Assembly (NCBI RefSeq): GCF_013620825.1
Contig: NZ_NJIC01000048.1
Coordinates: 21,657 to 85,656 of the forward strand
Origin: Rhodanobacter sp. PCA2
GTDB lineage: Bacteria; Pseudomonadota; Gammaproteobacteria; Xanthomonadales; Rhodanobacteraceae
Length of the DNA stretch: 64,000 nucleotides
Direction of reading: 5' to 3'
The position numbers were made by a program, and so were the translations under genes. The notes beneath the pieces were generated by a model that made no database searches, was not told where the DNA came from, and worked only from the letters and a program-made list of their open reading frames with translations. Below are positions 6,093 to 24,263 of this stretch, piece after piece. Numbering within the stretch: position 1 is the first letter of the stretch; each line of letters starts with the position of its first letter.

Positions 6093-7088
6093 ATGGACGA
6101 GATCGGCCCGACCGACCTCAAGTCGATACTTCATTCCAAACGCGCCAACATCTATTACCTGCAGCACTGCCGGGTTCTGGTCAACGGTGGCCGGGTCGAA
6201 TACGTCACCGACGCGGGCAGGCAATCGCTGTACTGGAACATCCCCATTGCCAACACCACCACGGTGTTGCTCGGCACGGGTACCTCGATCACCCAGGCCG
6301 CCATGCGCGAGCTGGCCAAGGCCGGCGTACTGGTGGGCTTCTGCGGTGGCGGGGGCACTCCGCTGTTCAGCGCCAACGAGGTCGATTTCGAGGTGGCGTG
6401 GTTTTCGCCGCAAAGCGAGTACCGTCCCACGGAATACATGCAGGCCTGGACGAGGTTCTGGTTCGACGACGATCTTCGCCTCGCTGCCGCCAAAGCTTTC
6501 CAGCATGCCCGCGCGCAGCGCATCCATGCAGCGTGGCAGAGCCGGGCCTTGCGCGATGCCGGTTTTATGGCCGACGGTGCACGGCTTGGCGAATTGCTGG
6601 AACGTACCCGCCGCCAGATCGATCTCGCGCAGGACGGCACCAGTCTCCTCACCGAAGAAGCCCGGCTGACCAAGGCGTTGTTCAAGCTGGCCGTGGATGC
6701 GGTGGGCTACGGCGAGTTCACCCGCGCCAAGCGCGGCAGCGGCAGCGACCCGGCCAACCGCTTTCTCGACCACGGCAATTATCTGGCCTACGGCCTTGGC
6801 GCCACTGCCACGTGGGTGCTTGGCCTGCCTCATGGTCTTGCCGTGCTGCACGGCAAGACCCGCCGCGGCGGCCTGGTGTTCGACACGGCCGATCTGGTGA
6901 AGGACGCCACCATCCTGCTGCAGGCCTTTCTCTCGGCGATGCGCGGCGACGAGGAACAAGGCTTCCGCCAGAACTGCGTCGAAGCGCTGACCCGCAGCGA
7001 ATCGCTGGACTTCATGATCGACACGCTCAAGACCGTGGCGCTCGAAACGGCTGCGCTTGCCGCTCCTCCACGAGGGGAAAACGCGTGA
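6093..7088 (+). CDS. cas1: CRISPR-associated integrase Cas1, type I-F
   Basis: A 331-residue Cas1, the metal-dependent integrase that with Cas2 inserts new spacers at the leader end of the array. The length and the N-terminal [14 protein letters not shown] match I-F Cas1 proteins. Metal ligands can be placed at E188/E189 (TEEA), H253 (HGKTRRGG), D264 and D267 (FDTADLVKD), at nearly the same numbers as in the Pseudomonas I-F enzyme. Start ATG 6093 has a GGGGG stretch about 8 nt upstream. Its stop overlaps the GTG start of cas2/3, so the two are translationally coupled, as expected since Cas1 and Cas2/3 act as a complex in I-F systems. Confidence 0.97.
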
Positions 7089-10000
7089 ACGTGCTGCTGG
7101 TCAGCCAATGCGACAAGCGGGCACTCACCGAAACCCGGCGCATTCTCGACCAGTTCGCCGAACGCCGCGGCGACCGCACCTGGCAGACCCCGATCACCCA
7201 GGCCGGGCTGGACACCTTGCGCAAGCTGCTGCGCAAAACCGCGCGCAAGAACACCGCCGTGGCCTGCCACTGGATACGCGGAGCCGACCACAGCGAACTC
7301 ATGTGGATAGTCGGCGATGCGCGCCGCTTCAATGCCGAGGGCGCGGTGCCGACCAACACCACGACCGGGGACGTGCTGCGCAAGGGCGACGAGAACGACT
7401 GGCACAACGCCGAGGCCATCCGCCTGCTGGCGCAACTGGCCGCGCTGCTGCACGACCTTGGCAAAGCCAGCGTGGCGTTCCAGCAGCGCCTGCAAGGCCG
7501 CCTCGACGGTCGCAACCGCTACCGCCACGAGTGGGTTTCGCTGCGCCTGTTCCTGGCCTTCGTGGGCGAGGACGACGATGCCGGCTGGCTGACGCGCATG
7601 GCCGGGGACGATGACGGCAACGAGGCGGGCTGGATCGCGCCCGGCCGCTATTTGCGCGACGGCGTGGATGAAGGCATCGATCGTCATCCCTTCCTCGACC
7701 TCACGCAGCGGGCGCCACTGGCCGCCGCGATCGGCTGGCTGATCGTCACGCATCACCGGCTGCCGCTGGTACCACGCAGGAACGACGACGGCAGCCAGGC
7801 GTGGCTGGGCAAGCGCGCGGCCGGGTTTCAGATCGCATGGCTGGACACGCCACTGGCTGGCGTCGCCCATGACTGGAACGAAATCGACCAGCGCTCCACG
7901 CCGGCCCAGGCCATGCCGTACTGGCAGCTTGCCGGCGAGTTGCCGGTGGCATCCCCGGCATGGCAGGCCCAGGCCCGGCGCGCAGCCAAGGCACTGCTCG
8001 AACTCGGAAGCCGCCACGACACGGATTGGCTGGACAATCCCTACGTCATGCATCTGGCGCGCCTCGCCCTGATGCTGGCCGACCACCACTACTCCAGCCT
8101 GGGCGTGGAGGGCAACGGCAAGCCCGCCGTCGAGCGCCAACGCTTCGTGCAGCCCGACCAGGCGCTGTTTGCCAACACCGCGAGAAACGCCAGCGGCCAA
8201 CCCGTGCCGAACCAGTCGCTGCTGGAGCACCTGCTCGGGGTCGGCCACACCGCCAGCCTGGTCGCCCACGCGCTGCCCCACTTCGAGCGCCACCTGCCCC
8301 GCCTCACCCACCATCGCGGCCTGCGCAAGCGCAGTTCCGATCCGCGTTTTGCGTGGCAGGACAAGGCCTTCGATGCAGCGACCGGAATGCGTGAAGCGGC
8401 GCGCGAACACGGCGCCTTCATCGTCAACATGGCATCCACCGGTTGCGGCAAGACACTGGCCAACGCACGCATCCTGTACGCCCTGGCCGAGCCGCAACTG
8501 GGGTTGCGTGCGAGCTATGCGCTGGGCCTGCGCACGCTCACCCTGCAAACCGGACGGAGCTACCGCCACGACCTGCACCTGAGCGACGACGAGCTGGCCG
8601 TCCTGGTGGGCGGCTCGGCCAGCCGCGCCCTGTTCGAGCATTACGAGGCCAGGGCCGAAGCCAACGGCTCGGCCTCCGTACAGGCATTGATCGAGGAAGA
8701 CAGCCACGTGCTCTACGAGGGCAACGTGGCCGACCACCCGCTGCTCTCGCGCGCGCTCGCCAATCCCGAGATCCGCAAGCTGCTTTCCGCGCCGATGCTG
8801 GTGTGCACCGTCGATCATCTCGCGCCGGCCACCGAGTCGCTGCGCGCCGGCCGGCAGATCGCGCCGATGCTGCGACTGATGAGCAGCGACCTGGTACTGG
8901 ACGAACTGGACGATTACGACCTGGACGACTTGCCCGCACTGACCCGGCTGACGCATTGGGCCGGCATGCTGGGCAGCCGCGTGGTGCTGTCCTCGGCCAC
9001 GCTGCCGCCGGCGCTGGTGCAAGGCATGTTCATGGCGTACTGCGCCGGCCGCCGGCATTACCGCCGCAACCGCGGGCTGATACGACCCAGCGCGGATGCT
9101 CCGGTCGACATGCCTTGCCTGTGGACCGATGAATTCGGCGCACAGGTGCAAAGCTGCGCCAGCGACGACAGCTTCTCCGCCGCCCACGCGCGCTTCGTCG
9201 AGCGCCGCGTGGGCAAACTGCGGGCACAGGAGCCGCTGCGCATCGCCGAGTTGCTGCCGCTGGCGATCGACGGAAAACAGCCCGACGCGCGCATCCACAT
9301 CGAGTTCGGCCATCGAGTGCGGGAAGCCTGCCTGCGCCTGCACGATGCACACGCCGAAACGGATCCCGCAACCGGCAGGCGCGCCAGCTTCGGCCTGGTG
9401 CGCATGGCCAACATCGGCCCGATCTTCGAGGTGGCCCGCGCACTGTGTGCAGGCGACATGCCAGCCAACACACGGATGCACCTGTGCGTGTACCACGCCC
9501 GCTTTCCCTTGGTGCAGCGTTCGGCCATCGAGGCAATGCTGGACGCCACGTTCAACCGACGCGACCCAGCGGCGGCATGGCGGCAGCCCGAAGTCCGCAA
9601 GGCGCTCGATGCCGGGAATGCCGAGGACAACCACTTGTTCGTGGTCCTTGCATCGCCGGTATGCGAGGTGGGGCGCGACTGGGACGCCGACTGGGCCCTC
9701 GCCGAACCTTCCTCGATGCGCTCGCTGATCCAGCTCGCGGGCCGTGTGCAGCGTCATCGCCGCAAGCCGCCGCCGGCACCCAACATGCTGGTGTTCGACA
9801 CCAACCTCAAAGGCATGAAGTGCGGCAACGGACACGAGGCGGCATTCACGCGCCCCGGCTTCGAGAAGGCCACGCAGGACGAGCGCTTCCTGCTGACCAG
9901 CCACAGCCTGACCCGGCTGCTTGCCGAGGCCGAGTATCGACACCTCACCGCCATCCCGCGCATCCAGCCGCGTGAGCCGCTCGAACCGCGCCACCGCTGG

Positions 10001-10513
10001 GTGGACCTGGAACACGCCCGCCTGCGCGACGGGCTGCTGCCGAAGCCGCCTGCGCCGGCGGCAGCATCGCCGCGCCGCGGCGGCGGACAGAAACCGTCGC
10101 TTGAAGCCCCCGCATGCTGGCGATACCCGCAGGCGGCGCTCATCGGCGTGCTGCCGCAGCAGCAGCCGTTCCGCGAAGACACCATGAGAACGACCACGCT
10201 CGCCTGGCTTCCCGGCGAGGACCCGGACGAAGAGACGCTGTTGCCGCATCGCGTCGAAGAGCTGCGCGACGGCAGGCGCGGCCAGAAGCTGTACGTTCCG
10301 GCAGGGGAGTTGCTCCCTCCGTTTTCGCTGGACGTCGCGCCGAACGTCAGTCGCTGGGGCGAATTCGACCTGCCGACGCTGGTGCGCGAACAGGCCGAAG
10401 CCCTGGACCAGTCGCTCGAACGCGCGGCGGAAAAATTCACCACGGTCGAGGTGCCGGAAAGCGGCCAGGGCTGGCTGGGCCATCCGTGGCTGGGATACGT
10501 CAAGAAACCCTGA
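7085..10513 (+). CDS. cas3: Cas2/3 fusion nuclease-helicase, type I-F
   Basis: A 1142-residue fusion of Cas2 and Cas3, the I-F hallmark. Residues 1 to about 95 form the Cas2-like domain ([20 protein letters not shown]). The HD nuclease motif is LLHDLGKAS with H123-D124. The superfamily 2 helicase follows: Walker A STGCGKT with K456, DE box LDELDD at 605-610, SSATLPP motif III, and motif [14 protein letters not shown] near 883-894. It degrades DNA bound by the Csy complex and also takes part in spacer acquisition. The GTG start at 7085 overlaps the cas1 TGA (GTGA). Its stop is only 6 bp from the stop of the convergent toxin gene. Confidence 0.97.
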
Positions 10514-10936: not shown

Positions 10937-11202
10937 TTGCCCGCATCCGGCTCGTCGAAATCCGGGGGATCGCGTTGCGGGTCACGGGCCGGCAGCTCCA
11001 GCTCCACGCCACCGAGCGGCTCCACCCGTGCGCGGATGGCCGCATACAGCGCTGCGCCGGAATCGTCCTCGACCCGGCCGGCCAAGGCGGCTCGCAGGAT
11101 GCTGCGCGCCTCCTCTTCCATCGACTGCCCATGCCGCGCCGCCCGCAACCGCAGCAGCGTCTTCAGGTCGTCGTCCAGATTACGGATGGTCATGGTGGCC
11201 AT
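10933..11202 (-). CDS. Antitoxin, FitA-like ribbon-helix-helix
   Basis: An 89-residue antitoxin. Residues 1-40 (MATMTIRNLDDDLKTLLRLR, then HGQSMEEEARSILR) form an Arc/FitA-type ribbon-helix-helix DNA-binding domain; the acidic, proline-rich tail (DPPDFDEPD) is the usual toxin-binding extension. I chose ATG 11202 because GGAGAG lies 7 nt upstream; an earlier in-frame GTG at 11247 would fall inside the operator-like palindrome 11221-11246. The pair is expected to repress its own promoter. Confidence 0.87.
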   Translation of the reverse strand: MATMTIRNLDDDLKTLLRLRAARHGQSMEEEARSILRAALAGRVEDDSGAALYAAIRARVEPLGGVELELPARDPQRDPPDFDEPDAGK

Positions 11203-11220
11203 GGGCAGGCTCTCCGGCAG

Positions 11221-11246
11221 TGACTGCAATGATTGCATTGTAGTCA
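11221..11246 (-). promoter_or_regulatory. fitAB operator palindrome with embedded -10
   Basis: Two 11-bp arms match in 10 of 11 positions around a 4-bp centre: on the plus strand TGACTGCAATG, ATTG, CATTGTAGTCA. On the minus strand it contains TACAAT (11242-11237), five of six matches to the -10 consensus, 35 bp before the fitA start. An antitoxin bound here would block RNA polymerase, the standard autoregulation of FitAB-type pairs. The corresponding -35 region is weak and overlaps the degenerate repeat at 11257-11284. Confidence 0.7.
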
Positions 11247-11256
11247 CTTCCGGAGC

Positions 11257-11334
11257 TGGTGCAGCTGCCTATGCGGCAGCGAGCGAATGGCGAAACAGAT
11301 CACGCAATTTTCTAAGCTACCTATTCGGTAGAAC
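11257..11334 (-). ncRNA. CRISPR-resembling mini-guide (repeat-spacer-repeat), CreR/CreA-like
   Basis: Read on the minus strand. First degenerate repeat, 11334-11309 (26 nt): GTTCTACCGAATAGGTAG then CTTAGAAA. It keeps a Cas6f-type 5-bp stem (CTACC/GGTAG, with both partners of one pair changed relative to the array) and an 8-nt 5' handle one base from the array's CTCAGAAA. Spacer, 11308-11285 (24 nt; array spacers are 32). Second degenerate repeat, 11284-11257: GCTCGCTGCCGCATAGGCAG keeps 17 of the first 20 array-repeat bases including the hairpin, while its last 8 nt have decayed. So exactly the parts that end up in one mature crRNA are kept. Family knowledge: CreA and CreR guides have this form and act with Cascade on nearby promoters. 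Its promoter is not clear. Confidence 0.85.
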
Positions 11335-11372
11335 AAACTAATCAAGCAATGGGAAAACTAATCAGGCAATGG
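11335..11372. repeat. Two 18-bp direct repeats: predicted Csy target sites
   Basis: AAACTAATCA(A/G)GCAATGG occurs at 11335-11352 and 11355-11372, differing at one base and spaced 20 bp. On the minus strand each reads CC then ATTGC, N, TGAT, and so carries an I-F type CC PAM followed by the seed of the mini-guide at 11285-11308. The promoter-proximal copy extends to a full 24-nt match (11370-11347): guide positions 1-5, 7-10, 13-16 and 19-23 match; 6, 11, 12, 17, 18 and 24 do not. The second copy matches 15 of 24, mainly in positions 1-16. Confidence 0.85.
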
Positions 11373-11401
11373 TTGTTGACGCTTTCTGCTTACGTTAGCA
11401 T
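11373..11401 (+). promoter_or_regulatory. Predicted csy operon promoter
   Basis: TTGTTG (11373-11378), 17 bp, TAGCAT (11396-11401) is the best sigma-70-like pair; TTGACG at 11376-11381 is an alternative -35. The -35 directly abuts the CC PAM of the proximal target repeat, so a Csy complex bound there would exclude RNA polymerase. Transcription would start near 11408, giving a leader of about 210 nt before csy1. Confidence 0.55.
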
Positions 11402-11407
11402 TCAAAA

Positions 11408-11437
11408 GTCGGGGCACCGTTGACGCGGTGCCCCGAC
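11408..11437 (+). other. 12-bp perfect hairpin at the predicted 5' end of the csy mRNA
   Basis: GTCGGGGCACCG, a 6-nt loop, then CGGTGCCCCGAC. It begins about where transcription should start. On the plus strand no T-run follows. On the minus strand it is followed by CTTTTG-like sequence (TTTTGAA), so it could also stop leftward transcripts. It may protect the 5' end of the mRNA; function is unknown. Confidence 0.6.
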
Positions 11438-11620
11438 AAACAGCCAGCCGGTTGGAAGCCCGGGCCTACACACGAAAGGTCAGACGTGTAAGAGGATGCA
11501 AGAAGTGCTCTATCGACACTTCAAAAGGAGAGTCTTGTAACGACTCGCCCGACACCCGCGGTAGCTAGCTGCCGCGGGATTCTACAGGCACACCCGCTCA
11601 GGGTGCATGAAGGGATTCCC
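11438..11620 (+). other. Structured 5' leader of the csy operon
   Basis: No conventional gene is seen. Several local hairpins follow one another: ACACG/CGTGT (11470-11489), AAGTG/CACTT (11503-11521), GAGTC/GACTC (11530-11546), a 10-bp CCCGCGGTAG/CTGCCGCGGG stem (11555-11578, one G-T pair) and CACCC/GGGTG (11591-11605). The csy1 Shine-Dalgarno AAGGG comes directly after. The regular run of stems suggests a structured untranslated region. I do not recognise a known riboswitch or RNA family. Confidence 0.45.
11496..11540 (+). CDS. Possible 14-residue mini-ORF with tandem rare Arg codons
   Basis: ATG at 11496, preceded by GAGG without spacing, reads 14 codons to TAA at 11538. Codons 11 and 12 are AGG-AGA, very rare in this GC-rich genome. 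The same bases also look like an isolated Shine-Dalgarno (AAAGGAGAG) with no start codon after it. The CreT toxins of CreTA modules are small RNAs with mini-ORFs that sequester rare tRNAs, so this deserves mention in this context, but the support is weak and no homology is seen. Confidence 0.2.
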   Translation: MQEVLYRHFKRRVL

Positions 11621-13003
11621 ATGAACGAGAAAACGGGTCCGGCATCACGTGCCGGCCTCTTCCGCGCCTCCATCGCCGGCTTCATCGACGGCCGGCGCGA
11701 AGCCAAGCTGAAAGGCAAGGAGGACGATGCCGGCACGGCATCGAAATACGACTACGCCACCTGGCTGGCCGATGCGGTACGCCGGGTGGGTCAGATCCAG
11801 GCCGTGACCCACGTGCTCAAGGCCACGCACCCGGACGCACGCGGCAGCAGCCTGCACGTCGCCCCGTCCAGCCTGCCGCAACACGTCGAAATCGGCAGCC
11901 ATCTGCTGGGCGACGCTTACGCCGAGGACGTGGTCGGCAATGCCGCAGCACTGGATGTGTTCAAGCTGCTCAAGCTCGAAGTCGACGGCAAGCGCCTGCT
12001 CGACTGGATGCAGGCCGGCGACGCCGATTTGCAGACCGCGCTATCCGACGACACTGATCAAGCCAAGGAATGGATGCTGGCATTCGCCTCGCTGGTGCGC
12101 GAGGAAGCCCAACCAGCCAGCCATCCCATGGCCAAGCAGCTTTACTGGTTGACCGGCGAAGATCCGCAGGACGACGCGCAATACCACCTGCTGCAACCGA
12201 TGTTCGCCAGTTCGCTGGTCCATGCCGTGCACGCCGACATCCAGGACGCACGCTTTGGCGAGGCCAACAAGGAAGCACGGCAAGCCAAGCGTGACGACAA
12301 GCCGAGCGACAGCCCCTACCGCGACTATCGCCACCTCGTCGCCCGCAAGTTGGGCGGCACCAAGCCGCAGAACATTTCGCAATTGAACAGCGAACGCGGC
12401 GGCGTGAACTATCTGCTGGCCTCGCTGCCGCCACCGGCATGGAAGCAAAACCGTGGCACGAGCCTGCTCAAGCTCGACTCGGTGCTCGACGAAAAGCATG
12501 GCGGGTTCAGCCGATTCGGCGGAGTGCGCGACTTGCTGCATGCGCTCACCTCCTTCCTGAAGAAGAACCCCGATCCCACCCTGGAAACCCGCAACCATCG
12601 CGAGACCATCGAACGAGCCATAGGCCAGGAACTGGCCATGTATGGTGTGGCGATCCGCGGGAACTGCGCGGCAGGCTGGACGCGCGATGAAACCTGTCGG
12701 CTGCCCCTGTGCGAACAGCTCTGGCTCGATCCCGATCGCACGGAATTGCCGGAACGCAACGATCCCGGGCATCCGCACTGGCGCGAAGATGACCGCGCCT
12801 TCAACGAGGCCTACGCGCGCGGCGACTGGGCCGATGAGGTAGCCACCCGCTTCGGTCTCTGGCTCAACAACCAACTACGCAAGCGCAGCGACACGCTGGT
12901 CGCGTTGGGCGAGGCGGAAATGCGCCATTTCGCCCACCAGGCCATCATCGAGGTCGCATGGCCTCTCCCACAGCAGCGTCACGCCAAGGCAGGTGCCGCA
13001 TGA
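11621..13003 (+). CDS. csy1: Csy1 (Cas8f), large subunit of the type I-F effector
   Basis: A 460-residue Csy1/Cas8f, slightly longer than the Pseudomonas protein. With Csy2 it forms the tail of the Csy complex, binds the crRNA 5' handle and reads the CC PAM. Recognition rests on position (first gene of csy1-2-3-4) and on family-typical stretches such as AIAGFIDGRREAKL-like N-terminus, GSHLLGDAYAEDVVGNAAAL and TKPQNISQLNSERGG. Start ATG 11621 has AAGGG at 7-nt spacing; an in-frame GTG at 11603 lacks a site. It ends in ATGA, overlapping csy2. The expression signal is the promoter at 11373-11401 with the two target repeats. Confidence 0.95.
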   Translation: MNEKTGPASRAGLFRASIAGFIDGRREAKLKGKEDDAGTASKYDYATWLADAVRRVGQIQAVTHVLKATHPDARGSSLHVAPSSLPQHVEIGSHLLGDAYAEDVVGNAAALDVFKLLKLEVDGKRLLDWMQAGDADLQTALSDDTDQAKEWMLAFASLVREEAQPASHPMAKQLYWLTGEDPQDDAQYHLLQPMFASSLVHAVHADIQDARFGEANKEARQAKRDDKPSDSPYRDYRHLVARKLGGTKPQNISQLNSERGGVNYLLASLPPPAWKQNRGTSLLKLDSVLDEKHGGFSRFGGVRDLLHALTSFLKKNPDPTLETRNHRETIERAIGQELAMYGVAIRGNCAAGWTRDETCRLPLCEQLWLDPDRTELPERNDPGHPHWREDDRAFNEAYARGDWADEVATRFGLWLNNQLRKRSDTLVALGEAEMRHFAHQAIIEVAWPLPQQRHAKAGAA

Positions 13004-13974
13004 ACTGCCCCGAGTTCACCCACCTGCTGGTGCTGCCGCACCTCAAGGTGCACAACGCCAATGCGGTCTCCAGCCCGCTGACCCACGGGTTTCCGTCCAT
13101 CACCGCGTTTCTCGGCCTGATGTGGGCATTGGAACGCAAGACCCGCGAGGCCGGCCTGGAGCTGGCTTTCAACGCCGTGGGTGTTGTCTGCCATGACCAC
13201 GAGGAACAGACCACCGAGGGCGGCTTCGTCAAAAGCTTCCGGCTCACCCGCAACCCCGTCGGCAAGGATGGCGGTACCGCCGCCATCGTCGAGGAAGGTC
13301 GCATCCATCTCGAACTGAGCTTGTTGCTGGCGGTGTACACCGAGAACTGGAACGAGGACGCCCAGCAGCGCGACCTGCAAACCATCACCGGATTGCTGCA
13401 GGGCATGCGCATTGCGGGCGGCACGCTGCTTCCGCCCGCCCTGCCGCAGGGGTCGCGACGCCGACCATGGATTGCGGACTTCACCGACGACGCACACGAC
13501 GACTTCCGCAAACTGCGCGCCCGACTCCTGCCCGGCTCCGCCCTGGTGGCACGCGATGACCTGATCGATCAGCGCCTGCAGGAGCTGCAAACGGCCACGC
13601 CGGCAGCCACCCGGCTTGATGCGTGGCTCTCGCTCTCGCGCATCAACTGGCGCCACGACGCTGCAGCCGAAGGCGGCAAGGGCGCCTGGCAGAACGACCG
13701 CACGAAAGGCTCCGGCTGGGTCGTACCCATCCCCGTCGGCTACGGCGCCCTCGGCAATCTGCATGCCGCCGGAAGCGTCGCCAATGCACGCGATGCCACC
13801 ACGCCATTCCGCTTCGTGGAGAGCCTGTACTCCATGGGCGAATGGATCGGTCCGCACCGCCTGCACTCGCCGAAGGACCTGCTTTGGTACGCCGACAGCC
13901 GTTCCGACGAGGGGCTGTACCGCTGCCGCAACGACTACCGCGCCGCCGACGTTCACGCCGGCACCACTCTCTGA
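13000..13974 (+). CDS. csy2: Csy2 (Cas5f) subunit of the type I-F effector
   Basis: A 324-residue Csy2/Cas5f, near the usual 327. It pairs with Csy1 at the 5' end of the crRNA. Family-typical stretches include [38 protein letters not shown] near the N-terminus and [27 protein letters not shown] later. The start overlaps the csy1 stop (ATGA), so translation is coupled. The next gene follows after 19 bp with its own AAGGAA. Confidence 0.95.
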
Positions 13975-13993: not shown

Positions 13994-15019
13994 ATGGCCA
14001 ACGAACTCAAGACCGCTTCCGTGCTCGCCTTCGAGCGCAAGCTCGATCCCTCCGACGCGTTGCTTTCCGCCGGCACTTGGAGCACACGCGACGACGCGCA
14101 AGCCTGGGCGCCTGTCACGCTGCGCGAAAAATCCGTGCGCGGAACCATCTCCAACCGACTCAAGACCAAGGACCAGGATCCGGCCAAACTCGACGCCGCC
14201 ATCGAGAACCCCAACCTGCAGACCGTGGATGTGGCCACCCTGCCCGCGGATGCGGACACGCTGAAGGTGCAGTTCACCCTGCGCGTACTCGCCGGCACCG
14301 GCCAGCCTTCCGCCTGCAACGATGCAGCGTACCGGCAGAAACTGCTGACCACCGTGGGCAGCTACGTACAGCAACACGGCTTTGCCGAGCTGGGCCGTCG
14401 CTACGCTGCCAATCTCGCCAATGGCCGTTTCCTGTGGCGCAACCGCATCGGTGCAGAGCAGGTGGAAGTGATCGTGGCCCACATCGAAGATGGCCGGCCC
14501 AAGGCCAGCTGGACATTCGACGCACTCTCCCACTCGCTGCAAACGCTCGCCGCCCCCGCCAGCGAAGCCCGGGCACATTCCGAATTGTCCGCGCTGGTGG
14601 CCGGTGGCCTTGCAGGCAACGCCCACGTACTGCTGCAAGTCACCGCGTTCGTGCGCATCGGCGCCGGGCAGGAGGTGTTCCCCTCGCAAGAGCTGATCCT
14701 CGACCGTGGCCGCGGCGACAAGAGCAAGACGCTGTACGCCGTCGAAGGCATCGCCGCCATCCACTCGCAGAAAATCGGCAACGCCCTGCGCACCATCGAC
14801 ACCTGGTACCCCGAAGCTGCCGGCAATGGGCCCATCGCCGTGGAGCCCTACGGCTCGGTCACCACCCAGGGCAAGGCCTATCGCCAGCCCAAGGAAAAGA
14901 CCGACTTCTACAACCTGCTCGACAATTGGATCCTCAAGGACAAGGCTCCCGAGCCGGAGCATCAACACTTCGTCATCGCCACGTTGATCCGGGGCGGCGT
15001 CTTCGGCGACGCGAACTGA
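13994..15019 (+). CDS. csy3: Csy3 (Cas7f) backbone subunit
   Basis: A 341-residue Csy3/Cas7f (342 in Pseudomonas). Six copies form the crRNA backbone of the Csy complex; their thumbs kink the guide every sixth base, which is the reason mismatches at positions 6, 12, 18 and 24 are tolerated. Typical features: [20 protein letters not shown] at the start, [16 protein letters not shown] in the middle and [19 protein letters not shown] near the end. ATG 13994 is preceded by AAGGAA. Four bases separate its stop from cas6f. Confidence 0.96.
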
Positions 15020-15023
15020 CGCC

Positions 15024-15590
15024 ATGACCACGCACTACATCGACATCCGGGTCGTCCCGGATCCGGAATCCGGGCCCGTGCAACTGCTGGGCGCCCTGTA
15101 CGACCGCCTGCACCTCGCGCTGGTACAGCAAGGGCACGACAGCATCGGTGTCAGCTTCCCAGGCTACAGCCTCAGCCCGCGGGCAATCGGCCCCACCCTG
15201 CGCCTGCATGGCAGCGAGGCCACACTGAAGCAACTGCTCGCCACCGACTGGCTGAAAGGTATGCGCGACCACGTCCGCATCAGCGACGTTGCCGCGGCAC
15301 CGGCCGATGCCCCGCATCGCGCGGTGCAGCGCAAGCAATTCAAGACCAACGCCGAACGCCTGCGGCGCCGGCGCATGCGCCGCAAGGACGAAACCGCAGA
15401 GCAAGCCCGGTCCGCCATTCCATCCAGCGTGGAACGTCGCCCCGACCTGCCCTATGTCCACATGCACAGCCGAAGCACCAGGCAGCCGTTCTGCCTGTTC
15501 ATAGCCATGGGCCCACTGCAGGCCAAAGCCACACCGGGCAGCTTCAACAGCCATGGACTCGGGGGAGCGGCCACCATCCCCTGGTTCTGA
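15024..15590 (+). CDS. cas6f: Cas6f (Csy4), crRNA-processing endoribonuclease
   Basis: A 188-residue Cas6f that cuts each repeat transcript 3' of its hairpin and stays bound to the 3' handle. The general base H30 (YDRLHLAL) corresponds to His29 of Pseudomonas Csy4, and S149/S151 (HSRSTRQ) to Ser148/Ser150. The arginine-rich helix KTNAERLRRRRMRRKDE (107-123) lies in the RNA major groove. The C-terminus GLGGAATIPWF is family-typical, but the position of Csy4 Tyr176 is His177 here (NSHGLG). It is the last cas gene; a strong terminator follows at 15639-15673, before the array. Confidence 0.96.
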   Translation: MTTHYIDIRVVPDPESGPVQLLGALYDRLHLALVQQGHDSIGVSFPGYSLSPRAIGPTLRLHGSEATLKQLLATDWLKGMRDHVRISDVAAAPADAPHRAVQRKQFKTNAERLRRRRMRRKDETAEQARSAIPSSVERRPDLPYVHMHSRSTRQPFCLFIAMGPLQAKATPGSFNSHGLGGAATIPWF

Positions 15591-15718: not shown

Positions 15719-15866
15719 GTTCGCTGCCGCGCAGGCAGCTCAGAAACGTTCGCCCCCATTCCTCTGCGCGCGTACTGGGTTCGCTGCCGCGCAGGCAGCT
15801 CAGAAATTCGACCAGTCTACGAAGTCCTCGAAGTATTCGTTCGCTGCCGCGCAGGCAGCTCAGAAA

Positions 15867-15898
15867 TTCACGTAAGGCGCCTCGAACACCAGCTGCTT
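15867..15898 (+). repeat. Duplicated spacer (copy 1, spacer 3)
   Basis: This 32-nt spacer, beginning TTCACGTAAGGCGCC, is identical to spacer 28 at 17368-17399. Neighbouring spacers differ, so it is not a block duplication. Confidence 0.97.
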
Positions 15899-17367
15899 GT
15901 TCGCTGCCGCGCAGGCAGCTCAGAAAGTGTCGCCACTTGCTCACTGCTTGACGTGACAGTTCGCTGCCGCGCAGGCAGCTCAGAAATTGGCGGATACCCA
16001 GCGGTGAGCCTTCAGGACGTTCGCTGCCGCGCAGGCAGCTCAGAAAAGCAACGGCTTCGTGGACGACGATATCCCGTTGTTCGCTGCCGCGCAGGCAGCT
16101 CAGAAATGGCGCGGCATCGCGGTCGGTCGGTTGCCGGGGTTCGCTGCCGCGCAGGCAGCTCAGAAAAAACGAAAATCCGTTTGGACGGCTAAACAGGAGT
16201 TCGCTGCCGCGCAGGCAGCTCAGAAATTAAGCCACTTCCACATCTTGATGCCATAGTGGTTCGCTGCCGCGCAGGCAGCTCAGAAACGTATGCTCGGGTG
16301 ATGAAGTGCTTTGTGCAAGTTCGCTGCCGCGCAGGCAGCTCAGAAAATTGGTGGCGGCCGTGATATTGCTCTTTGAGCGTTCGCTGCCGCGCAGGCAGCT
16401 CAGAAATGGATCGGGACGGACTGGGGACGTTGCGGCACGTTCGCTGCCGCGCAGGCAGCTCAGAAATGATCGCCCTCACCTCGCCAGCGGCGATCGCCGT
16501 TCGCTGCCGCGCAGGCAGCTCAGAAAAGATGCACGTGCGCACTTTCGCTGTCGGCTCGGTTCGCTGCCGCGCAGGCAGCTCAGAAAAGTCCGACGCCCAC
16601 GCCGACAAGCGCCGAGAGGTTCGCTGCCGCGCAGGCAGCTCAGAAACTGCTGGGCGACGGCGTATGCCTTTCGATCACTGTTCGCTGCCGCGCAGGCAGC
16701 TCAGAAATGCGTCAGCGTGCCGGCAAGCTCATCCTTCAGGTTCGCTGCCGCGCAGGCAGCTCAGAAAAAGACCACAGCCGGTCCGCAGCACGGCAACGCG
16801 TTCGCTGCCGCGCAGGCAGCTCAGAAAATACAGGCGACAGCTTTCGAATCGAAGTCCGCGTTCGCTGCCGCGCAGGCAGCTCAGAAATTCGTGATCCGCT
16901 GCACCCAGTCAGCAGGCATGTTCGCTGCCGCGCAGGCAGCTCAGAAAGGATCAGTGACCGGAGGGTTCGGCGGCGTAGTGTTCGCTGCCGCGCAGGCAGC
17001 TCAGAAACTGCTTACGCAGCGCGGCTGTCTGCTGGTCCAGTTCGCTGCCGCGCAGGCAGCTCAGAAAAACGATTCGGTCTGTCGTGCTCACTCTCCATCG
17101 TTCGCTGCCGCGCAGGCAGCTCAGAAATGCTCGACGCTGCCACGGCTTTCCTCGATCGCGTTCGCTGCCGCGCAGGCAGCTCAGAAAAGCAGCAAGAGCG
17201 AAGGCCGCACCCGAGTGCAGTTCGCTGCCGCGCAGGCAGCTCAGAAAAACGATGCACTGCGCCGCAGCGACTACGCGGCGTTCGCTGCCGCGCAGGCAGC
17301 TCAGAAAATCGCCGGGGTCTCCTGCAATGCCCATCCATTGTTCGCTGCCGCGCAGGCAGCTCAGAAA

Positions 17368-17399
17368 TTCACGTAAGGCGCCTCGAACACCAGCTGCTT
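17368..17399 (+). repeat. Duplicated spacer (copy 2, spacer 28)
   Basis: Identical over 32 nt to spacer 3 at 15867-15898, 25 units nearer the leader end. Being further from the leader, this copy is the older one. Confidence 0.97.
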
Positions 17400-20300
17400 G
17401 TTCGCTGCCGCGCAGGCAGCTCAGAAATGGCAGAAGCAGGTCGTTATCGACATCGGAGCGTTCGCTGCCGCGCAGGCAGCTCAGAAAGCGACGGGCTCGC
17501 CAGCTACCAGATGCACGTGGTTCGCTGCCGCGCAGGCAGCTCAGAAACAGTGTGCCGGCCGCGTTGCCGGTCATCGATTGTTCGCTGCCGCGCAGGCAGC
17601 TCAGAAATCGTAGTCGTCCTTCGTCTTCTGCGCCAGCAGGTTCGCTGCCGCGCAGGCAGCTCAGAAACTGCGAACCCCGAGCCGAACTGCCCGAAACACG
17701 TTCGCTGCCGCGCAGGCAGCTCAGAAATTCAACTCTCATGGCTTCGTGTCGCACGTTGGGTTCGCTGCCGCGCAGGCAGCTCAGAAATTCACCACCACGG
17801 TGCCGGCGCTGCCCAGGTCGTTCGCTGCCGCGCAGGCAGCTCAGAAATCTTGCACAACGGCAAAGGTTCCAATTCTGGCGTTCGCTGCCGCGCAGGCAGC
17901 TCAGAAAATACAGTGCGGCCAGCTTGTCCGCGTTGGCCTGTTCGCTGCCGCGCAGGCAGCTCAGAAAATAGGGCAGCATTCCCGAATTTCTTTGATCGTG
18001 TTCGCTGCCGCGCAGGCAGCTCAGAAACCGCAAGCACCAGCCGAGGTCTGGTCGCCACGGTTCGCTGCCGCGCAGGCAGCTCAGAAAAACGCTGCCTGGT
18101 ATTTCTGCACCGCGATGATGTTCGCTGCCGCGCAGGCAGCTCAGAAAAGAACGAGAAGCTTAAGCTGCAGCGTGATCGAGTTCGCTGCCGCGCAGGCAGC
18201 TCAGAAAAGCTTGATCGCCTGCAGCAGCGCCGGCGTGGTGTTCGCTGCCGCGCAGGCAGCTCAGAAAGGTCGTGCCGCCAGCCCACTTGAACGAGGTCGG
18301 TTCGCTGCCGCGCAGGCAGCTCAGAAAACGTTACGGTGTGGACCCTGAAACGTTGCCGCGTTCGCTGCCGCGCAGGCAGCTCAGAAATATCGACGATCTC
18401 TGGATGGCTCTCAGGGCGGGTTCGCTGCCGCGCAGGCAGCTCAGAAAATGCGGACATTCGCAAGGTGGTTGGCGGGTACGTTCGCTGCCGCGCAGGCAGC
18501 TCAGAAAAGACGAAACACAAGCGCCCGGCGAACCCCGTGGTTCGCTGCCGCGCAGGCAGCTCAGAAAAGCCATCCCGGCGGGGCGAAATGAGGAAAGCGG
18601 TTCGCTGCCGCGCAGGCAGCTCAGAAAACCCACACGTAGCGAGCACGCACGCCATTACTGTTCGCTGCCGCGCAGGCAGCTCAGAAACGGAGTCGTCGGT
18701 TTCGTCGTCATCGGTCTGAGTTCGCTGCCGCGCAGGCAGCTCAGAAATCATGGCGCGACGAACATCAAGACCGCGCACAGTTCGCTGCCGCGCAGGCAGC
18801 TCAGAAAATGGCGTGATCAGCGTACTGACTGGGGGCAAGGTTCGCTGCCGCGCAGGCAGCTCAGAAAGCCTGATGGCGCGACAGAAGAAGCTGAACGATG
18901 TTCGCTGCCGCGCAGGCAGCTCAGAAAATTTGACGACCCCACATCGCCAGGCTTCTGACGTTCGCTGCCGCGCAGGCAGCTCAGAAACGATTCTCTTTCG
19001 CGACACGACCAATCCGCCGGTTCGCTGCCGCGCAGGCAGCTCAGAAAAGCGGGAAGGTGGCGACGTCGGCATCCTCGCCGTTCGCTGCCGCGCAGGCAGC
19101 TCAGAAAGGATCAGTGCCCTTCGGACCACCGCCATTCGAGTTCGCTGCCGCGCAGGCAGCTCAGAAAGACTGGTGACGATGAAGGTCGCCATTGAGCCAG
19201 TTCGCTGCCGCGCAGGCAGCTCAGAAAATGCCCCGCGCCCCTCGCGCCGCTGATCAGCCGTTCGCTGCCGCGCAGGCAGCTCAGAAACGGATCAGCCGCC
19301 TACGGCGGCGCCGGGCGGGGTTCGCTGCCGCGCAGGCAGCTCAGAAAGATGATAATCGACGCCTTCAGAATCTTGGAGCGTTCGCTGCCGCGCAGGCAGC
19401 TCAGAAAATGCAGCGGCCCCACTCGTATCGAGTGACTACGTTCGCTGCCGCGCAGGCAGCTCAGAAAGCCAGGGCAACCGGGTGCACGGTCGTGCCATTG
19501 TTCGCTGCCGCGCAGGCAGCTCAGAAAAGTCGCCGCGCTTCATCTTGCGGCCCGGCAGCGTTCGCTGCCGCGCAGGCAGCTCAGAAAACGCCGCTGGCCA
19601 TGCCGCTGCCGTCGTACAGGTTCGCTGCCGCGCAGGCAGCTCAGAAAAGTGACGGCTGCGCCGATTGCCATGTTCGCTCGTTCGCTGCCGCGCAGGCAGC
19701 TCAGAAAATCGAGCAGCTCATCTGCCGAAACTTCTTCTCGTTCGCTGCCGCGCAGGCAGCTCAGAAACTGAGCGGGGCTTTGAATTTCACGGGGCGGCGA
19801 GTTCGCTGCCGCGCAGGCAGCTCAGAAAGAGTAGCGCCTTAAGAGCCCATTGTCCGACAGGTTCGCTGCCGCGCAGGCAGCTCAGAAATGACATTTAGAC
19901 GTTTAGACGTCCAAAAAGGAGTTCGCTGCCGCGCAGGCAGCTCAGAAATTTGAGCTGTTTGCCGAATCACGCGGATGGGAGTTCGCTGCCGCGCAGGCAG
20001 CTCAGAAAAAGGAATACCGTCAACGCGAGGGCGCATCCACGTTCGCTGCCGCGCAGGCAGCTCAGAAACGTTTGGGTGCGGGATGTCCTGGGCGGCCATG
20101 GTTCGCTGCCGCGCAGGCAGCTCAGAAAGGTGTGGATCGGCTACGACCCGAAGGGCGACGGTTCGCTGCCGCGCAGGCAGCTCAGAAATGCCAATCGCAA
20201 ACTCCCGCCGACAACGCCCCGTTCGCTGCCGCGCAGGCAGCTCAGAAATGATCCGGAATATGTGAATGGTAAAGCTGAACGTTCGCTGCCGCGCAGGCAG

Positions 20301-23300
20301 CTCAGAAAGACCTGGCGTTCGCGTAGCGCATCGCCTTGACGTTCGCTGCCGCGCAGGCAGCTCAGAAATGGTCCTGGGTAAGCTCAGGGCAAGCGAGGCT
20401 GTTCGCTGCCGCGCAGGCAGCTCAGAAATACAGTTCTGCGTGGCAGCAGTGTATTGCGGCGTTCGCTGCCGCGCAGGCAGCTCAGAAATGCTGCGCCTGG
20501 CACGGCGGCAGGGGATACGGGTTCGCTGCCGCGCAGGCAGCTCAGAAAGGTACAGCGGCGAAGGCTCCACCGGAGTAAACGTTCGCTGCCGCGCAGGCAG
20601 CTCAGAAATCAGACAGTCAAAGCAGCCGCACTCGGGACAGGTTCGCTGCCGCGCAGGCAGCTCAGAAAACATTATCGTGCGCGCCAAGATTGAGCATGGG
20701 GTTCGCTGCCGCGCAGGCAGCTCAGAAAGTAGACATCGGCGTCGATGGGCACGATGGCGAGTTCGCTGCCGCGCAGGCAGCTCAGAAAGCTCCCGACCCT
20801 TAGCCATTAACTCGCAGGCGGTTCGCTGCCGCGCAGGCAGCTCAGAAAACAGCGCTGCCCCTACGCTTACGCGGTTTGATGTTCGCTGCCGCGCAGGCAG
20901 CTCAGAAAGTCTGCGCGGCGGCATCGGTCGCGCGAGGCGTGTTCGCTGCCGCGCAGGCAGCTCAGAAATTCCCGACATCGACCAGCCCTCCGCAACTGTC
21001 GTTCGCTGCCGCGCAGGCAGCTCAGAAATTTGAGCCGAGGCTTGGTCGTGTGCGTGTTGCGTTCGCTGCCGCGCAGGCAGCTCAGAAAGTGGGGATGCCC
21101 CAGGAGTTGAGCTGCTGGGCGTTCGCTGCCGCGCAGGCAGCTCAGAAAACGATCATGCGGCGACCGGTGTCCCCGTTGTTGTTCGCTGCCGCGCAGGCAG
21201 CTCAGAAAACTTCACGGGATCTGCATTGATCCCCTGATCGGTTCGCTGCCGCGCAGGCAGCTCAGAAATGTCGCGATCTGCCAAATGTAGGCAGGAGTGG
21301 GTTCGCTGCCGCGCAGGCAGCTCAGAAATTCGCTGTCGCCAGGCGCGCGCGCCATTGCGTGTTCGCTGCCGCGCAGGCAGCTCAGAAACGCCGGATCAGT
21401 GGGGCGACGCCTTTCTACGGGTTCGCTGCCGCGCAGGCAGCTCAGAAAACAGGCAGCTGCCGCCGTCAGTGCAGGACAAGGTTCGCTGCCGCGCAGGCAG
21501 CTCAGAAACAACCCGTAGAATTGCTTAAGGGCCTATTCGGGTTCGCTGCCGCGCAGGCAGCTCAGAAAAGTGGGGGTGCGCAGATATGCGTCCCCGGTAA
21601 GTTCGCTGCCGCGCAGGCAGCTCAGAAAAGCGTGACCATCTCGCCACTGGCGGTGTAACCGTTCGCTGCCGCGCAGGCAGCTCAGAAATAATGTCAACAA
21701 TTATTTTTGCCGCCCTGGCCGTTCGCTGCCGCGCAGGCAGCTCAGAAATACACGATCCGGCGGATACGCCTTGCCCAGCAGTTCGCTGCCGCGCAGGCAG
21801 CTCAGAAAGCAACGCTCATCAGCGACCCGGACGCGATGTTGTTCGCTGCCGCGCAGGCAGCTCAGAAAATTCAGGAGATGGGCGGCATGCGCAGCGGCAC
21901 GTTCGCTGCCGCGCAGGCAGCTCAGAAATCCAGCGTGCCGGGTTTCCAGCAGGTGGAGGGGTTCGCTGCCGCGCAGGCAGCTCAGAAAATTCAGATGTCG
22001 ATATGTCGAATATTCCTGCAGTTCGCTGCCGCGCAGGCAGCTCAGAAAATGCAGAGCCCACAGCGACCAGCACACCCACCGTTCGCTGCCGCGCAGGCAG
22101 CTCAGAAAACAAGGAGATCGACTTCGGCAACGGCAAGGCCGTTCGCTGCCGCGCAGGCAGCTCAGAAAACAATGGAGGCTCCATGAACATCCGCGCAAAC
22201 GTTCGCTGCCGCGCAGGCAGCTCAGAAATCAACGAACCATCGGCAACCACCGAACAGGCCGTTCGCTGCCGCGCAGGCAGCTCAGAAAGTCGCGACCAGT
22301 TGCGGGAGCTGCCACAAGATGTTCGCTGCCGCGCAGGCAGCTCAGAAAGCATTCCGGGCAGCGCGCCGCCTCCAGCATGTGTTCGCTGCCGCGCAGGCAG
22401 CTCAGAAAACGAAAGAGCGTGGTGCAGTGGCTTGGGCCGCGTTCGCTGCCGCGCAGGCAGCTCAGAAAATAAAATGCAACCGGCCAATCAGTCGATCCTT
22501 GTTCGCTGCCGCGCAGGCAGCTCAGAAATATGCTTCGGCTGCCCACTCGTCCTGAAAGCAGTTCGCTGCCGCGCAGGCAGCTCAGAAAAACTCGCCGAAG
22601 TTCAGGTCTTCGGGCGGCATGTTCGCTGCCGCGCAGGCAGCTCAGAAATCGACAACCTCGGCGCGCTGCTGGGTGTCACCGTTCGCTGCCGCGCAGGCAG
22701 CTCAGAAAATCGTCCAGTGCCTGATCGCTGGTCGGCCCTCGTTCGCTGCCGCGCAGGCAGCTCAGAAAAGTCAGCGTTGCGGCGGACACGGCGCGTCCAG
22801 GTTCGCTGCCGCGCAGGCAGCTCAGAGAATGAAGGATGCCGCCAAAGCCGTGCAACAACTGTTCGCTGCCGCGCAGGCAGCTCAGAAAACAACACATGCT
22901 GGCCGCACGCACTGGCACGTGTTCGCTGCCGCGCAGGCAGCTCAGAAAGATGTACGCATGCGCTTGATGCGCTGCGCTTCGTTCGCTGCCGCGCAGGCAG
23001 CTCAGAAACGTCTCCGATCAGCGACCCTGCTACCGCAGTTGTTCGCTGCCGCGCAGGCAGCTCAGAAAGTGAGCTCGGTAACGATGGCATCGGACAGGTT
23101 GTTCGCTGCCGCGCAGGCAGCTCAGAAAAGCCGCATGCATCGGCGTGGGGAAGATACTTGGTTCGCTGCCGCGCAGGCAGCTCAGAAATAAGAATAATGG
23201 CGATGTTGTGGCCCGTCGCAGTTCGCTGCCGCGCAGGCAGCTCAGAAATTCTCGCGAATGATGTTGAGGTCCAGCAGAAAGTTCGCTGCCGCGCAGGCAG

Positions 23301-24263
23301 CTCAGAAACAGTTCGCTATTTTCTCGCCAAGCGGCGCACCGTTCGCTGCCGCGCAGGCAGCTCAGAAACATTCGTGGACGAGGTTGTCGTCCGCCAGCGC
23401 GTTCGCTGCCGCGCAGGCAGCTCAGAAATGTCAAGCCTACGTGAGTTCGTGGAACGCCGGGTTCGCTGCCGCGCAGGCAGCTCAGAAAATGTCGCCATAC
23501 GCAACTTCACGGCCGCAGTGGTTCGCTGCCGCGCAGGCAGCTCAGAAATCGCGGTGGAGGAACAAGATCACGTCGGCCTTGTTCGCTGCCGCGCAGGCAG
23601 CTCAGAAAAGTCCGGCCACATCGACTTGCGGCGACGCCGGGTTCGCTGCCGCGCAGGCAGCTCAGAAACTATGTCGAGCGTCTCTCGACACAAGGGGCCA
23701 GTTCGCTGCCGCGCAGGCAGCTCAGAAATTGCCTCGCTATTCGATTACCAGCAGACGTGGGTTCGCTGCCGCGCAGGCAGCTCAGAAAAACGCCGATAAG
23801 CGCCGAGACCGCCCAAGCGCGTTCGCTGCCGCGCAGGCAGCTCAGAAAACTCAGAATTTTCCTGGCCGCATCCTCGCTGGGTTCGCTGCCGCGCAGGCAG
23901 CTCAGAAATCAGCGAGCATATCCAGCGCATCCGTTATCGAGTTCGCTGCCGCGCAGGCAGCTCAGAAATGACCGCGCACGTGAACGGCATCCCCAAGATG
24001 GTTCGCTGCCGCGCAGGCAGCTCAGAAAGCGAACAGCAACGCGATCACGTCCAATACCGCGTTCGCTGCCGCGCAGGCAGCTCAGAAATACGCCGGCGCC
24101 GAGACGGCCAATCTGCCCGAGTTCGCTGCCGCGCAGGAAGCTCAGAAATCTTCCACGCTGAGCACGGCGGGAAGCGAGCCGTTCGCTCCCGCACAAGCAG
24201 CTCAGAAGTGATCGGCGATGGGGGTTTGGCCCAGCGCTGAGCACATCCGGAATCGAGGGCGCA

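What the first reader, a model, noticed from the sequence alone, without database searches (positions are those of the whole stretch)
11347..11372. The mini-guide matches the csy promoter next to a CC PAM, with mismatches at every sixth base
Read on the minus strand, 11372-11371 is CC, the I-F PAM, and 11370-11347 aligns with the 24-nt guide without gaps. Positions 1-5 (ATTGC), 7-10 (TGAT), 13-16 (GTTT) and 19-23 (CCATT) match: 18 of 24. The mismatches are 6, 11, 12, 17, 18 and 24. Positions 6, 12, 18 and 24 are those flipped out by Cas7 thumbs in type I complexes, so 18 of the 20 positions that can pair do pair. The PAM touches the -35 at 11373. This predicts binding without efficient cleavage and hence repression of csy1-4 by their own complex: autoregulation that would be relieved when crRNA load or anti-CRISPRs occupy the complex.
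Basis: partly seen in the sequence, partly recalled or inferred. Interest (0 to 1): 0.97.

Follow-up and report, generated by a model that had tools for sequence, protein, structure and literature searches.

The report
Self-silencing CRISPR operon with toxin leader
A short CRISPR-like guide next to this bacterium's type I-F immune genes matches two sites at those genes' predicted promoter, so the immune complex would likely switch off its own operon, whose transcript is predicted to begin with a toxin-like RNA that would be released if the complex fails.

Summary
The 24-nt guide (11308-11285, minus strand) lies between two degenerate I-F repeats. It matches 11370-11347 at 18 of 24 positions beside a CC PAM that touches the predicted -35. 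A second CC-flanked copy lies 20 bp away (11350-11327); the core pattern occurs nowhere else in the 3.9-Mb genome.
The arrangement is conserved but the sequence is not. I found it upstream of csy1 in 52 of 135 loci, with 51 distinct guides. Pairing is kept at positions 1-5, 7-11 and 13-17 and not at 6, 12 and 18, as expected of guides used by a Csy complex on DNA.
The csy1 leader carries a Shine-Dalgarno and an 11-codon mini-ORF whose GUG start pairs with codon 5, with AGG-AGA at codons 8-9. The Acinetobacter I-F CreT family has the same layout. Tandem AGA/AGG/TTA mini-ORFs occur in 24 of 52 guide-bearing and 0 of 83 guide-less loci.
Best reading: a CreTA-type module in the csy leader, so repression silences toxin RNA and csy1-4 together. 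Toxicity, repression and co-transcription are untested.

The parts
6093..7088 (+). cas1 (type I-F)
   Evidence: NCBIfam cas1_YPEST, 500 bits, cut-off 150; start by reading frame
7085..10513 (+). cas3f (cas2-3)
   Evidence: NCBIfam cas3_yersinia, 1196 bits
11262..11284 (-). second degenerate repeat (psiR2), stem CTGCC-GCATA-GGCAG
   Evidence: 11263-11279 is Rfam CRISPR-DR4 only at E 0.19
11285..11308 (-). 24-nt guide (CreA/CreR-like)
11309..11334 (-). first degenerate repeat (psiR1), stem CTACC-GAATA-GGTAG, 5' handle CTTAGAAA
   Evidence: Rfam CRISPR-DR4 E 6.5e-4, 28.9 bits, below the gathering score of 35
11327..11352 (-). second, tandem target with CC PAM (11352-11351); overlaps psiR1
11347..11372 (-). 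main target with CC PAM (11372-11371), 18 of 24 matched
11373..11401 (+). predicted promoter: -35 TTGTTG, 17 nt, -10 TAGCAT
   Evidence: best -35-like site starts within 5 nt of the first G of the GG in 39 of 52 loci; weak consensus, none called by the generic scan
11408..11437 (+). hairpin at the predicted 5' end of the transcript (13 bp)
   Evidence: a stem of 9 bp or more in 19 of 27 CreT-like leaders and 7 of 25 others
11490..11495 (+). Shine-Dalgarno AAGAGG
11502..11522 (+). hairpin that contains the start codon: GAAGUG ... CACUUC
   Evidence: not formed in a 48-nt fragment
11505..11540 (+). CreT-like mini-ORF GTG CTC TAT CGA CAC TTC AAA AGG AGA GTC TTG TAA
   Evidence: layout shared with Acinetobacter sp. 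LoGeW2-3 CreT
11555..11585 (+). G+C-rich hairpin followed by ATTCTAC, recurrent in this leader class
   Evidence: a GC stretch + ATTCTA in 26 of 52 leaders
11621..13003 (+). csy1
   Evidence: NCBIfam cas_Csy1
13000..13974 (+). csy2
   Evidence: NCBIfam cas_Csy2
13994..15019 (+). csy3
   Evidence: NCBIfam cas_Csy3; start
15024..15590 (+). csy4
   Evidence: NCBIfam cas_Csy4
15719..24148 (+). CRISPR array, 141 repeats; 138 spacers of 32 nt and 2 of 33 nt

Best explanation
The divergent mini-CRISPR carries a 24-nt guide that matches two CC-flanked sites touching the predicted csy promoter, and it would likely load into the cell's own Csy complex and repress a transcript predicted to begin with a CreT-like toxin RNA and to run on into csy1-4. 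Shown by sequence and comparison: the guide, the degenerate repeats, both targets, the sixth-position pairing rule, the Shine-Dalgarno plus AGG-AGA mini-ORF with a start codon that can pair with codon 5, and the restriction of tandem-rare-codon mini-ORFs to guide-bearing loci in my sample. Inferred: Csy4 processes the minus-strand transcript; the short, partly matched R-loop binds stably but does not recruit Cas3 efficiently; while enough guide-loaded complex exists the promoter is off. If the complex is lost, blocked by an anti-CRISPR or drained by array crRNAs, the promoter opens. [quoted passage not shown] The circuit would therefore be autoregulation and addiction in one: refill the complex or stop growing. 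In related loci without the toxin leader only the autoregulation part would apply.
For: Guide, PAM and target confirmed; core pattern unique to the two sites in the genome. Same arrangement at 52 of 135 csy1 loci (49 of 122 after near-duplicates are removed) with 51 distinct guides. Match counts over 52 loci: positions 1-5: 52, 51, 52, 52, 50; position 6: 8; 7-11: 51, 46, 48, 47, 48; 12: 8; 13-17: 48, 39, 45, 44, 38; 18: 7. Positions 6, 12 and 18 were not used for scoring, so their loss is unbiased: 23 of 156. Repeat stems vary with both arms compensating in most cases (CTGCC/GGCAG, CTACC/GGTAG, CTTCT/AGAAG, CTATC/GATAG). Leader fold z = -5.1 with the start codon in the stem. Shine-Dalgarno plus start codon paired to nt 13-15 in 26 of 52 leaders against a shuffle mean of 1.37, maximum 5 of 52. 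Tandem AGA/AGG/TTA at codons 8-9 in 19 of those 26, at 6-7 in 4, absent in 3. Tandem-rare mini-ORFs in 24 of 52 guide-bearing and 0 of 83 guide-less loci; 22 of 49 and 0 of 73 without near-duplicates. The same scan recovers the guide and CreT of Acinetobacter sp. LoGeW2-3, one of three I-F CreTA strains named in PMC10097628. In the window TTA is the rarest codon (0.31 per 1000) and AGA ninth rarest (1.68).
Against: No expression, binding or toxicity data. The promoter is weak by consensus. AGG (2.83 per 1000) is not among the 14 rarest codons of the window, and single tRNA genes for UCU and CCU are not special, since most anticodons found have one gene; one of 48 tRNA matches had no resolved anticodon. 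Codons 2 and 3 of the WCHA45 CreT (TTT AGC), essential there, are not kept here (CTC TAT), and rare codons were not reported as needed in Acinetobacter. The start-codon stem is absent from the fold of a 48-nt fragment, and the 100-nt mini-CRISPR strand as a whole folds no better than shuffles (z -0.30). 25 of 52 guide-bearing loci have no mini-ORF passing either rule. Two of the 26 mini-ORFs (L019, L057) show no stop in the codons printed. Co-transcription of leader and csy1 is inferred from the lack of a called + strand terminator or promoter; the hairpin at 11555-11585 could act as a weak terminator. Related loci are not independent, so p-values overstate.
Confidence: 0.65

Rival explanations
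1. Pure CreR-type autoregulation: the guide represses csy1-4 to set complex level to crRNA supply, and the leader is only a structured 5' untranslated region.
For: Guide and target as above. Eleven of 52 loci have under 200 nt between target and csy1 and no CreT-like mini-ORF by my rules, e.g. 69 nt in L107 and L109. A review describes CreR as autorepression in types I-B, I-E and V-A.
Against: The start-codon hairpin and tandem rare codons in a fixed register, the latter found only in guide-bearing loci of my sample, are not explained by an ordinary leader.
Confidence: 0.19
2. CreTA only: creT is a discrete toxin RNA that ends at the 11555-11585 hairpin, and csy1-4 are transcribed mainly otherwise, so csy itself is not autoregulated.
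For: Layout of the Acinetobacter module; a G+C stretch with ATTCTA recurs (19 of 27 CreT-like leaders, 7 of 25 others).
Against: No + strand terminator-like or promoter-like site called in 11200-11640 (the scan also misses the predicted main promoter, so this is weak); only 35 nt lie between the ATTCTAC and csy1.
Confidence: 0.1
3. The mini-ORF is a leader peptide: ribosome pausing at AGG-AGA refolds the leader and tunes csy1 translation (attenuation), with no toxicity.
For: The leader folds far better than shuffles; hairpins flank the mini-ORF; rare codons are classic pause sites (general knowledge).
Against: Arg and Leu codons interchange in the same register (AGA, AGG, TTA), which fits rarity rather than one amino-acid signal; the same layout is a proven toxin in Acinetobacter WCHA45.
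Confidence: 0.05
4. Chance match or dead relic of an old self-targeting spacer.
For: The repeats are degenerate and the match is partial; 7 of 139 array spacers reach the same score somewhere in 64 kb.
Against: The two sites are the only ones with the core pattern in the genome; in this intergenic region array spacers reach at most 11; the arrangement is conserved with changing sequence.
Confidence: 0.01

Closest known systems
Type I-F CreTA of Acinetobacter (WCHA45, LoGeW2-3, ANC3789; PMC10097628, sections 6, 10, 11 and passages read)
   Same: cas3-csy1 intergenic place; divergent guide gene with two degenerate repeats; CC-flanked partial target; Shine-Dalgarno plus mini-ORF; start codon in a hairpin stem pairing with codon 5. 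I also see AGA-AGG at codons 8-9 and GTC at codon 10 in LoGeW2-3.
   Different: Here two tandem targets lie upstream of the predicted -35, whereas in WCHA45 the start site is reported upstream of the target; loop codons TTT AGC are not conserved; a VapBC-like pair lies between cas3 and the guide.
CreR autoregulators of cas operons (Liu et al. 2023, not held; seen through reviews PMC13131331, PMC12737573 and PMC12948488, passages)
   Same: crRNA-like guide partly matching a cas promoter; predicted relief by crRNA load or anti-CRISPRs.
   Different: Subtype I-F (one review names I-B, I-E and V-A; another says type I and V-A); here the leader carries a CreT-like RNA.
Mini-arrays of Shmakov et al. 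2023, NAR, doi 10.1093/nar/gkad495 (title seen in reference lists; content recalled, not read)
   Same: Recalled: two-repeat mini-arrays whose spacer partly matches cas promoters, with an I-F1 example tested as a regulatory guide.
   Different: Whether the leader toxin signature is described there could not be checked.
Haloarchaeal CreT (PMC8501985, passages)
   Same: Short mini-ORF with two consecutive rare codons plus stem-loop; an efficient start codon is needed, and a strong Shine-Dalgarno in H. hispanica.
   Different: Archaeal type I-B; rare codons stand close to the start codon rather than at codons 8-9; no start-codon hairpin of this geometry is described in the passages read.

Membership tests
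Type I-F CreTA | guide gene with two degenerate, hairpin-forming repeats | tested here: met
Type I-F CreTA | guide partly matches a nearby CC-flanked target upstream of, or in, the toxin transcript | tested here: met
   (two targets)
Type I-F CreTA | divergent mini-ORF with Shine-Dalgarno downstream of the target | tested here: met
Type I-F CreTA | start codon within a hairpin stem, nt 1-3 paired with nt 13-15 | tested here: met
   (full leader, MFE and centroid); not in a 48-nt fragment; geometry from PMC10097628 section 11
Type I-F CreTA | loop codons TTT AGC, essential for toxicity in WCHA45 | tested here: not met
   the window has CTC TAT; this is a trait of the one member tested, and most other hits here differ there too
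Type I-F CreTA | CreT RNA is toxic and repressed by the guide with Csy proteins | not testable with these tools
   needs an experiment
CreR autoregulator | guide partly matches the promoter of the cas operon | tested here: met
   target abuts the predicted -35 of the unit leading into csy1; the promoter itself is predicted only
CreR autoregulator | no coupled toxin | tested here: inconclusive
   CreT-like leader present here; none found in 11 short-leader loci
CreR autoregulator | cas expression rises when guide, crRNA competition or Acr is changed | not testable with these tools
   needs an experiment
tRNA-sequestering CreT | tandem rare codons in a short efficiently started ORF | tested here: met
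   AGG AGA at codons 8-9; AGA is ninth rarest in the window, AGG only moderately rare
tRNA-sequestering CreT | toxicity relieved by extra cognate tRNA | not testable with these tools
   needs an experiment

The most novel reading that the evidence does not exclude
Poison and cure on one messenger: in many proteobacterial type I-F systems the csy operon's own 5' leader is a CreT toxin that starves the cell of a rare tRNA through two rare codons in a fixed register (codons 8-9, interchangeably AGA, AGG or TTA). The Csy complex, guided by a self-made mini-CRISPR, silences toxin and operon together, and tandem operators back up the switch. Losing the complex would force the cell either to rebuild it from the same transcript or to stop growing.
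Probability: 0.38. Interest if true: 0.82.

Novelty: new variant of a known kind. Interest (0 to 1): 0.62.

Why it matters
It would show that immune autoregulation (CreR) and addiction (CreTA) can be one circuit on one transcript in type I-F systems, with the guide arrangement present in 52 of the 135 csy1 loci examined. It gives a sequence rule (guide pairing at 1-5, 7-11 and 13-17; rare codons at 8-9) by which such modules can be found and tested. It also predicts that anti-CRISPRs or csy mutations that remove the complex would trigger growth arrest, which bears on phage escape and on the stability of CRISPR tools built on native I-F systems.

Tried and rejected
Chance: rejected by uniqueness of the core pattern in the genome, shuffles, and array spacers in the same region. 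Known RNA family for the leader: only a sub-threshold Twister-P5 score at 11407-11463 (19.9 bits, gathering 37.6), taken as chance because it covers the 5' hairpin. Alternative start at the ATG of 11496-11498, in frame with the GTG: set aside because it touches the Shine-Dalgarno and is ATA in L019. Two terminator-like sites were called, both on the minus strand (11437-11408 and 11546-11530); they may stop antisense transcripts and were not followed. Plasmid search with the intergenic DNA: no match.

How the counts were made: the threshold was 12 of 15 within 320 nt and 11 of 15 within 330 nt. Dropped before counts: L113, L138 and L160 (other geometry or far upstream) and a + strand hit in L146; one + strand hit in L075. 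Six named loci repeat earlier genomes (L086, L117, L116, L133, L150, L157). L034 (11 of 15) was below the threshold, was added by eye, and its guide was entered by hand; L137 also has 11. 135 is 61 csy1 loci plus 80, less those six; ten of the 83 negatives and three of the 52 positives are near-duplicates. Negatives were read over the 400 nt before the csy1 match; for family-model hits that match starts inside csy1, and a few contigs end early (L140 has 102 nt). For the same reason leader lengths of L034-L081 are overstated. One search gave 29 new loci for 31 other csy1 genomes. In one search, 13 of 52 loci have their best -35-like site elsewhere. Caballeronia L210, Vitreoscilla L211 and Acinetobacter ANC 7970 L209 also have guide and target (12, 14 and 14 of 15) but were not added to the 52; the hairpin rule gave no convincing CreT in them.

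Full report
What is there. The window carries a complete type I-F locus: cas1, cas3f, csy1-4 (all above their NCBIfam cut-offs) and a 141-repeat array. Between cas3 and csy1 lie a VapC-like toxin with its partner on the minus strand and then, still on the minus strand, a mini-CRISPR: a degenerate repeat (11334-11309, Rfam CRISPR-DR4 E 6.5e-4 though below the gathering score), a 24-nt guide (11308-11285) and a second degenerate repeat (11284-11262). Both repeats fold into a 5- or 6-bp stem with a 5-nt loop.

The observation. A second CC-flanked site at 11350-11327, 20 bp away, has the same 13 of 15. The pattern of CC plus 13 fixed bases occurs twice in the 3.9-Mb genome, at these two places. 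Over 11,270 CC sites in the window no other site reaches 13 of 15. Against this, 7 of 139 array spacers also reach 13 somewhere in the 64 kb, so the score alone is not the argument.

Comparison. I scanned the DNA upstream of csy1 in relatives (family: 18 of 233 genomes have csy1; order: 22 of 398; class: 32 of 369, these sets overlapping; 80 named loci). With a rule of a CTNAGAAA-like handle, a hairpin before it and a CC target, 52 of 135 loci were kept as positive (49 of 122 without near-duplicates). In all 52 the guide is on the strand opposite to csy1 and the target lies between guide and csy1; hits of other geometry were dropped, as told in Tried and rejected. 51 of the 52 guides differ in their first 17 nt, some only slightly, many wholly, so the thing conserved is the match, not the sequence. 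Positions 1-5, 7-11 and 13-17 match in 38 to 52 loci each, and positions 6, 12 and 18 in 8, 8 and 7. The last three were not part of the score and together match 23 of 156, below the 25% of chance. This is the pattern expected if the duplex is read by Cas7-family subunits that flip out each sixth base (general knowledge; positions 6 and 12 are said not to pair for CreA in PMC8501985, passage). The best -35-like site starts within 5 nt of the first PAM base in 39 of 52. Tandem second targets of at least 11 of 15 within 40 nt occur in 10 of 51 loci: L014, L018, L029, L085, L115, L120, L121, L126, L128 and L148, spaced 18-24 nt.

What the promoter makes. The predicted transcript starts near 11408 with a 13-bp hairpin and has 213 nt before csy1. 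It folds far better than its shuffles (z -5.1). At 11490-11495 is AAGAGG, followed at 11505 by GTG CTC TAT CGA CAC TTC AAA AGG AGA GTC TTG TAA. The GUG pairs with the CAC of codon 5 in a 6-bp stem in the full leader, though not in a 48-nt fragment. This is the geometry reported for the Acinetobacter WCHA45 CreT, a bactericidal RNA that needs its Shine-Dalgarno, start codon and hairpin (PMC10097628 sections 10-11). By a fixed rule (Shine-Dalgarno, start codon nt 1-3 paired to 13-15, stem of at least 4) 26 of 52 leaders have it; 200 dinucleotide shuffles give a mean of 1.37 and a maximum of 5. A 5' stem of 9 bp or more is found in 19 of 27 leaders with a CreT call and 7 of 25 without; mononucleotide shuffles of the 27 give a mean of 1.2, maximum 4.

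Rare codons. In 19 of those 26 mini-ORFs codons 8 and 9 are both AGA, AGG or TTA; in 4 the pair is at codons 6-7; in 3 there is none. Arg and Leu codons replace each other (AGA AGA 11, TTA AGA 4, TTA TTA 4, AGG AGA 2, AGA TTA 2, AGG TTA 1 of 24), so rarity rather than the amino acid seems kept. Such mini-ORFs occur in 24 of 52 guide-bearing loci and in 0 of 83 guide-less ones; 22 of 49 and 0 of 73 without near-duplicates. Relatedness is not otherwise corrected. By eye, some leaders outside the rule look alike with other codons: TCA TCA at codons 9-10 with CAC at codon 6 in L018 and L085, TCA AGA at 8-9 in L145, TCA ATA at 8-9 in L061 (letters). In the window, from 17 long ORFs chosen by length and GC3 (so approximate), TTA is rarest (0.31 per 1000), AGA ninth (1.68) and AGG 2.83, outside the 14 rarest. 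The genome has one gene each for tRNA-Arg(UCU), tRNA-Arg(CCU) and tRNA-Leu(UAA) among 48 tRNA matches, one of which has an unresolved anticodon; single genes are the rule for most anticodons there.

Positive control. Among plasmids, Acinetobacter sp. LoGeW2-3, named in PMC10097628 as carrying a CreTA module, was found by its Csy1. The same scan recovers its guide (14 of 15, CC) and its mini-ORF ATG TTT AGC ACA CAT TTA GTT AGA AGG GTC TAG. Codon 5 is CAY, codons 8-9 are AGA AGG and codon 10 is GTC; the window has CAC, AGG AGA and GTC at the same codons. A second Acinetobacter plasmid (ANC 7970, L209) has guide and target (14 of 15) but no such mini-ORF by the rule. The main text of that paper has no 'AGG'; its supplements were not readable.

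Mechanism. I commit to a combined circuit: the guide-loaded Csy complex represses one promoter that gives a CreT-like leader and csy1-4. Shown: anatomy and comparison. Inferred: processing, binding without cutting (the guide is 24 nt against 32 in the array, and pairing is partial), co-transcription (no + strand promoter or terminator called, a scan that also misses the predicted main promoter), toxicity and its rare-tRNA basis. Eleven short-leader loci suggest that csy autoregulation exists without the toxin. The guide's own promoter must lie near the targets, so the bound complex would probably also damp the guide itself; this is inference only.

Prior work. CreR autorepression is described for I-B, I-E and V-A (PMC13131331, passage) and CreTA for I-F in Acinetobacter. 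Liu 2023 and Shmakov 2023 were not held; from recall the latter tested an I-F1 mini-array as a regulatory guide, so the general idea is in print. The listings show no paper whose title or abstract start speaks of tandem rare codons in I-F CreT, but the library misses most subscription journals. Hence: new variant of a known kind.

Noticed in passing
10520-11247: A VapC-like PIN toxin (10520-10936, minus; NCBIfam VapC matches of 46-50 bits, below their cut-offs) and its ribbon-helix-helix-like partner (about 10933-11202, minus; by eye, no NCBIfam match) sit between cas3 and the mini-CRISPR; a 28-bp near-palindrome at 11220-11247 just upstream may be their operator. By eye, similar pairs stand at the same place in several guide-less relatives (e.g. 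L015, L017, L025).
   Followed up: partly
15867-15898 and 17368-17399: One 32-nt spacer occurs twice in the array, 1501 bp apart; two other spacers are 33 nt instead of 32.
   Followed up: partly
24181-24208: A last, strongly degenerate repeat follows the 141st repeat at the far end of the array.
   Followed up: no
L164 (Pokkaliibacter plantistimulans), leader +117 and +222: Two successive CreT-like mini-ORFs with AGA AGA at codons 8-9 in one csy leader.
   Followed up: no
L018, L029, L085, L115, L120, L121, L126, L128, L148: Tandem CC-flanked targets 18-24 nt apart recur in nine other loci, as in the window.
   Followed up: partly
L018, L085, L145, L061 leaders: Mini-ORFs outside the AGA/AGG/TTA rule carry TCA TCA (codons 9-10), TCA AGA or TCA ATA (codons 8-9), as if other rare codons could serve (by eye).
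   Followed up: partly
11555-11585 and the same place in relatives: A G+C-rich stretch followed by ATTCTA recurs in these leaders (26 of 52); its role (terminator, stabiliser or switch) is unexplained.
   Followed up: partly
11408-11437, minus strand: The 5' hairpin of the leader, read on the minus strand, is followed by TTTT and scores as a terminator; it may stop antisense transcripts before the guide.
   Followed up: no
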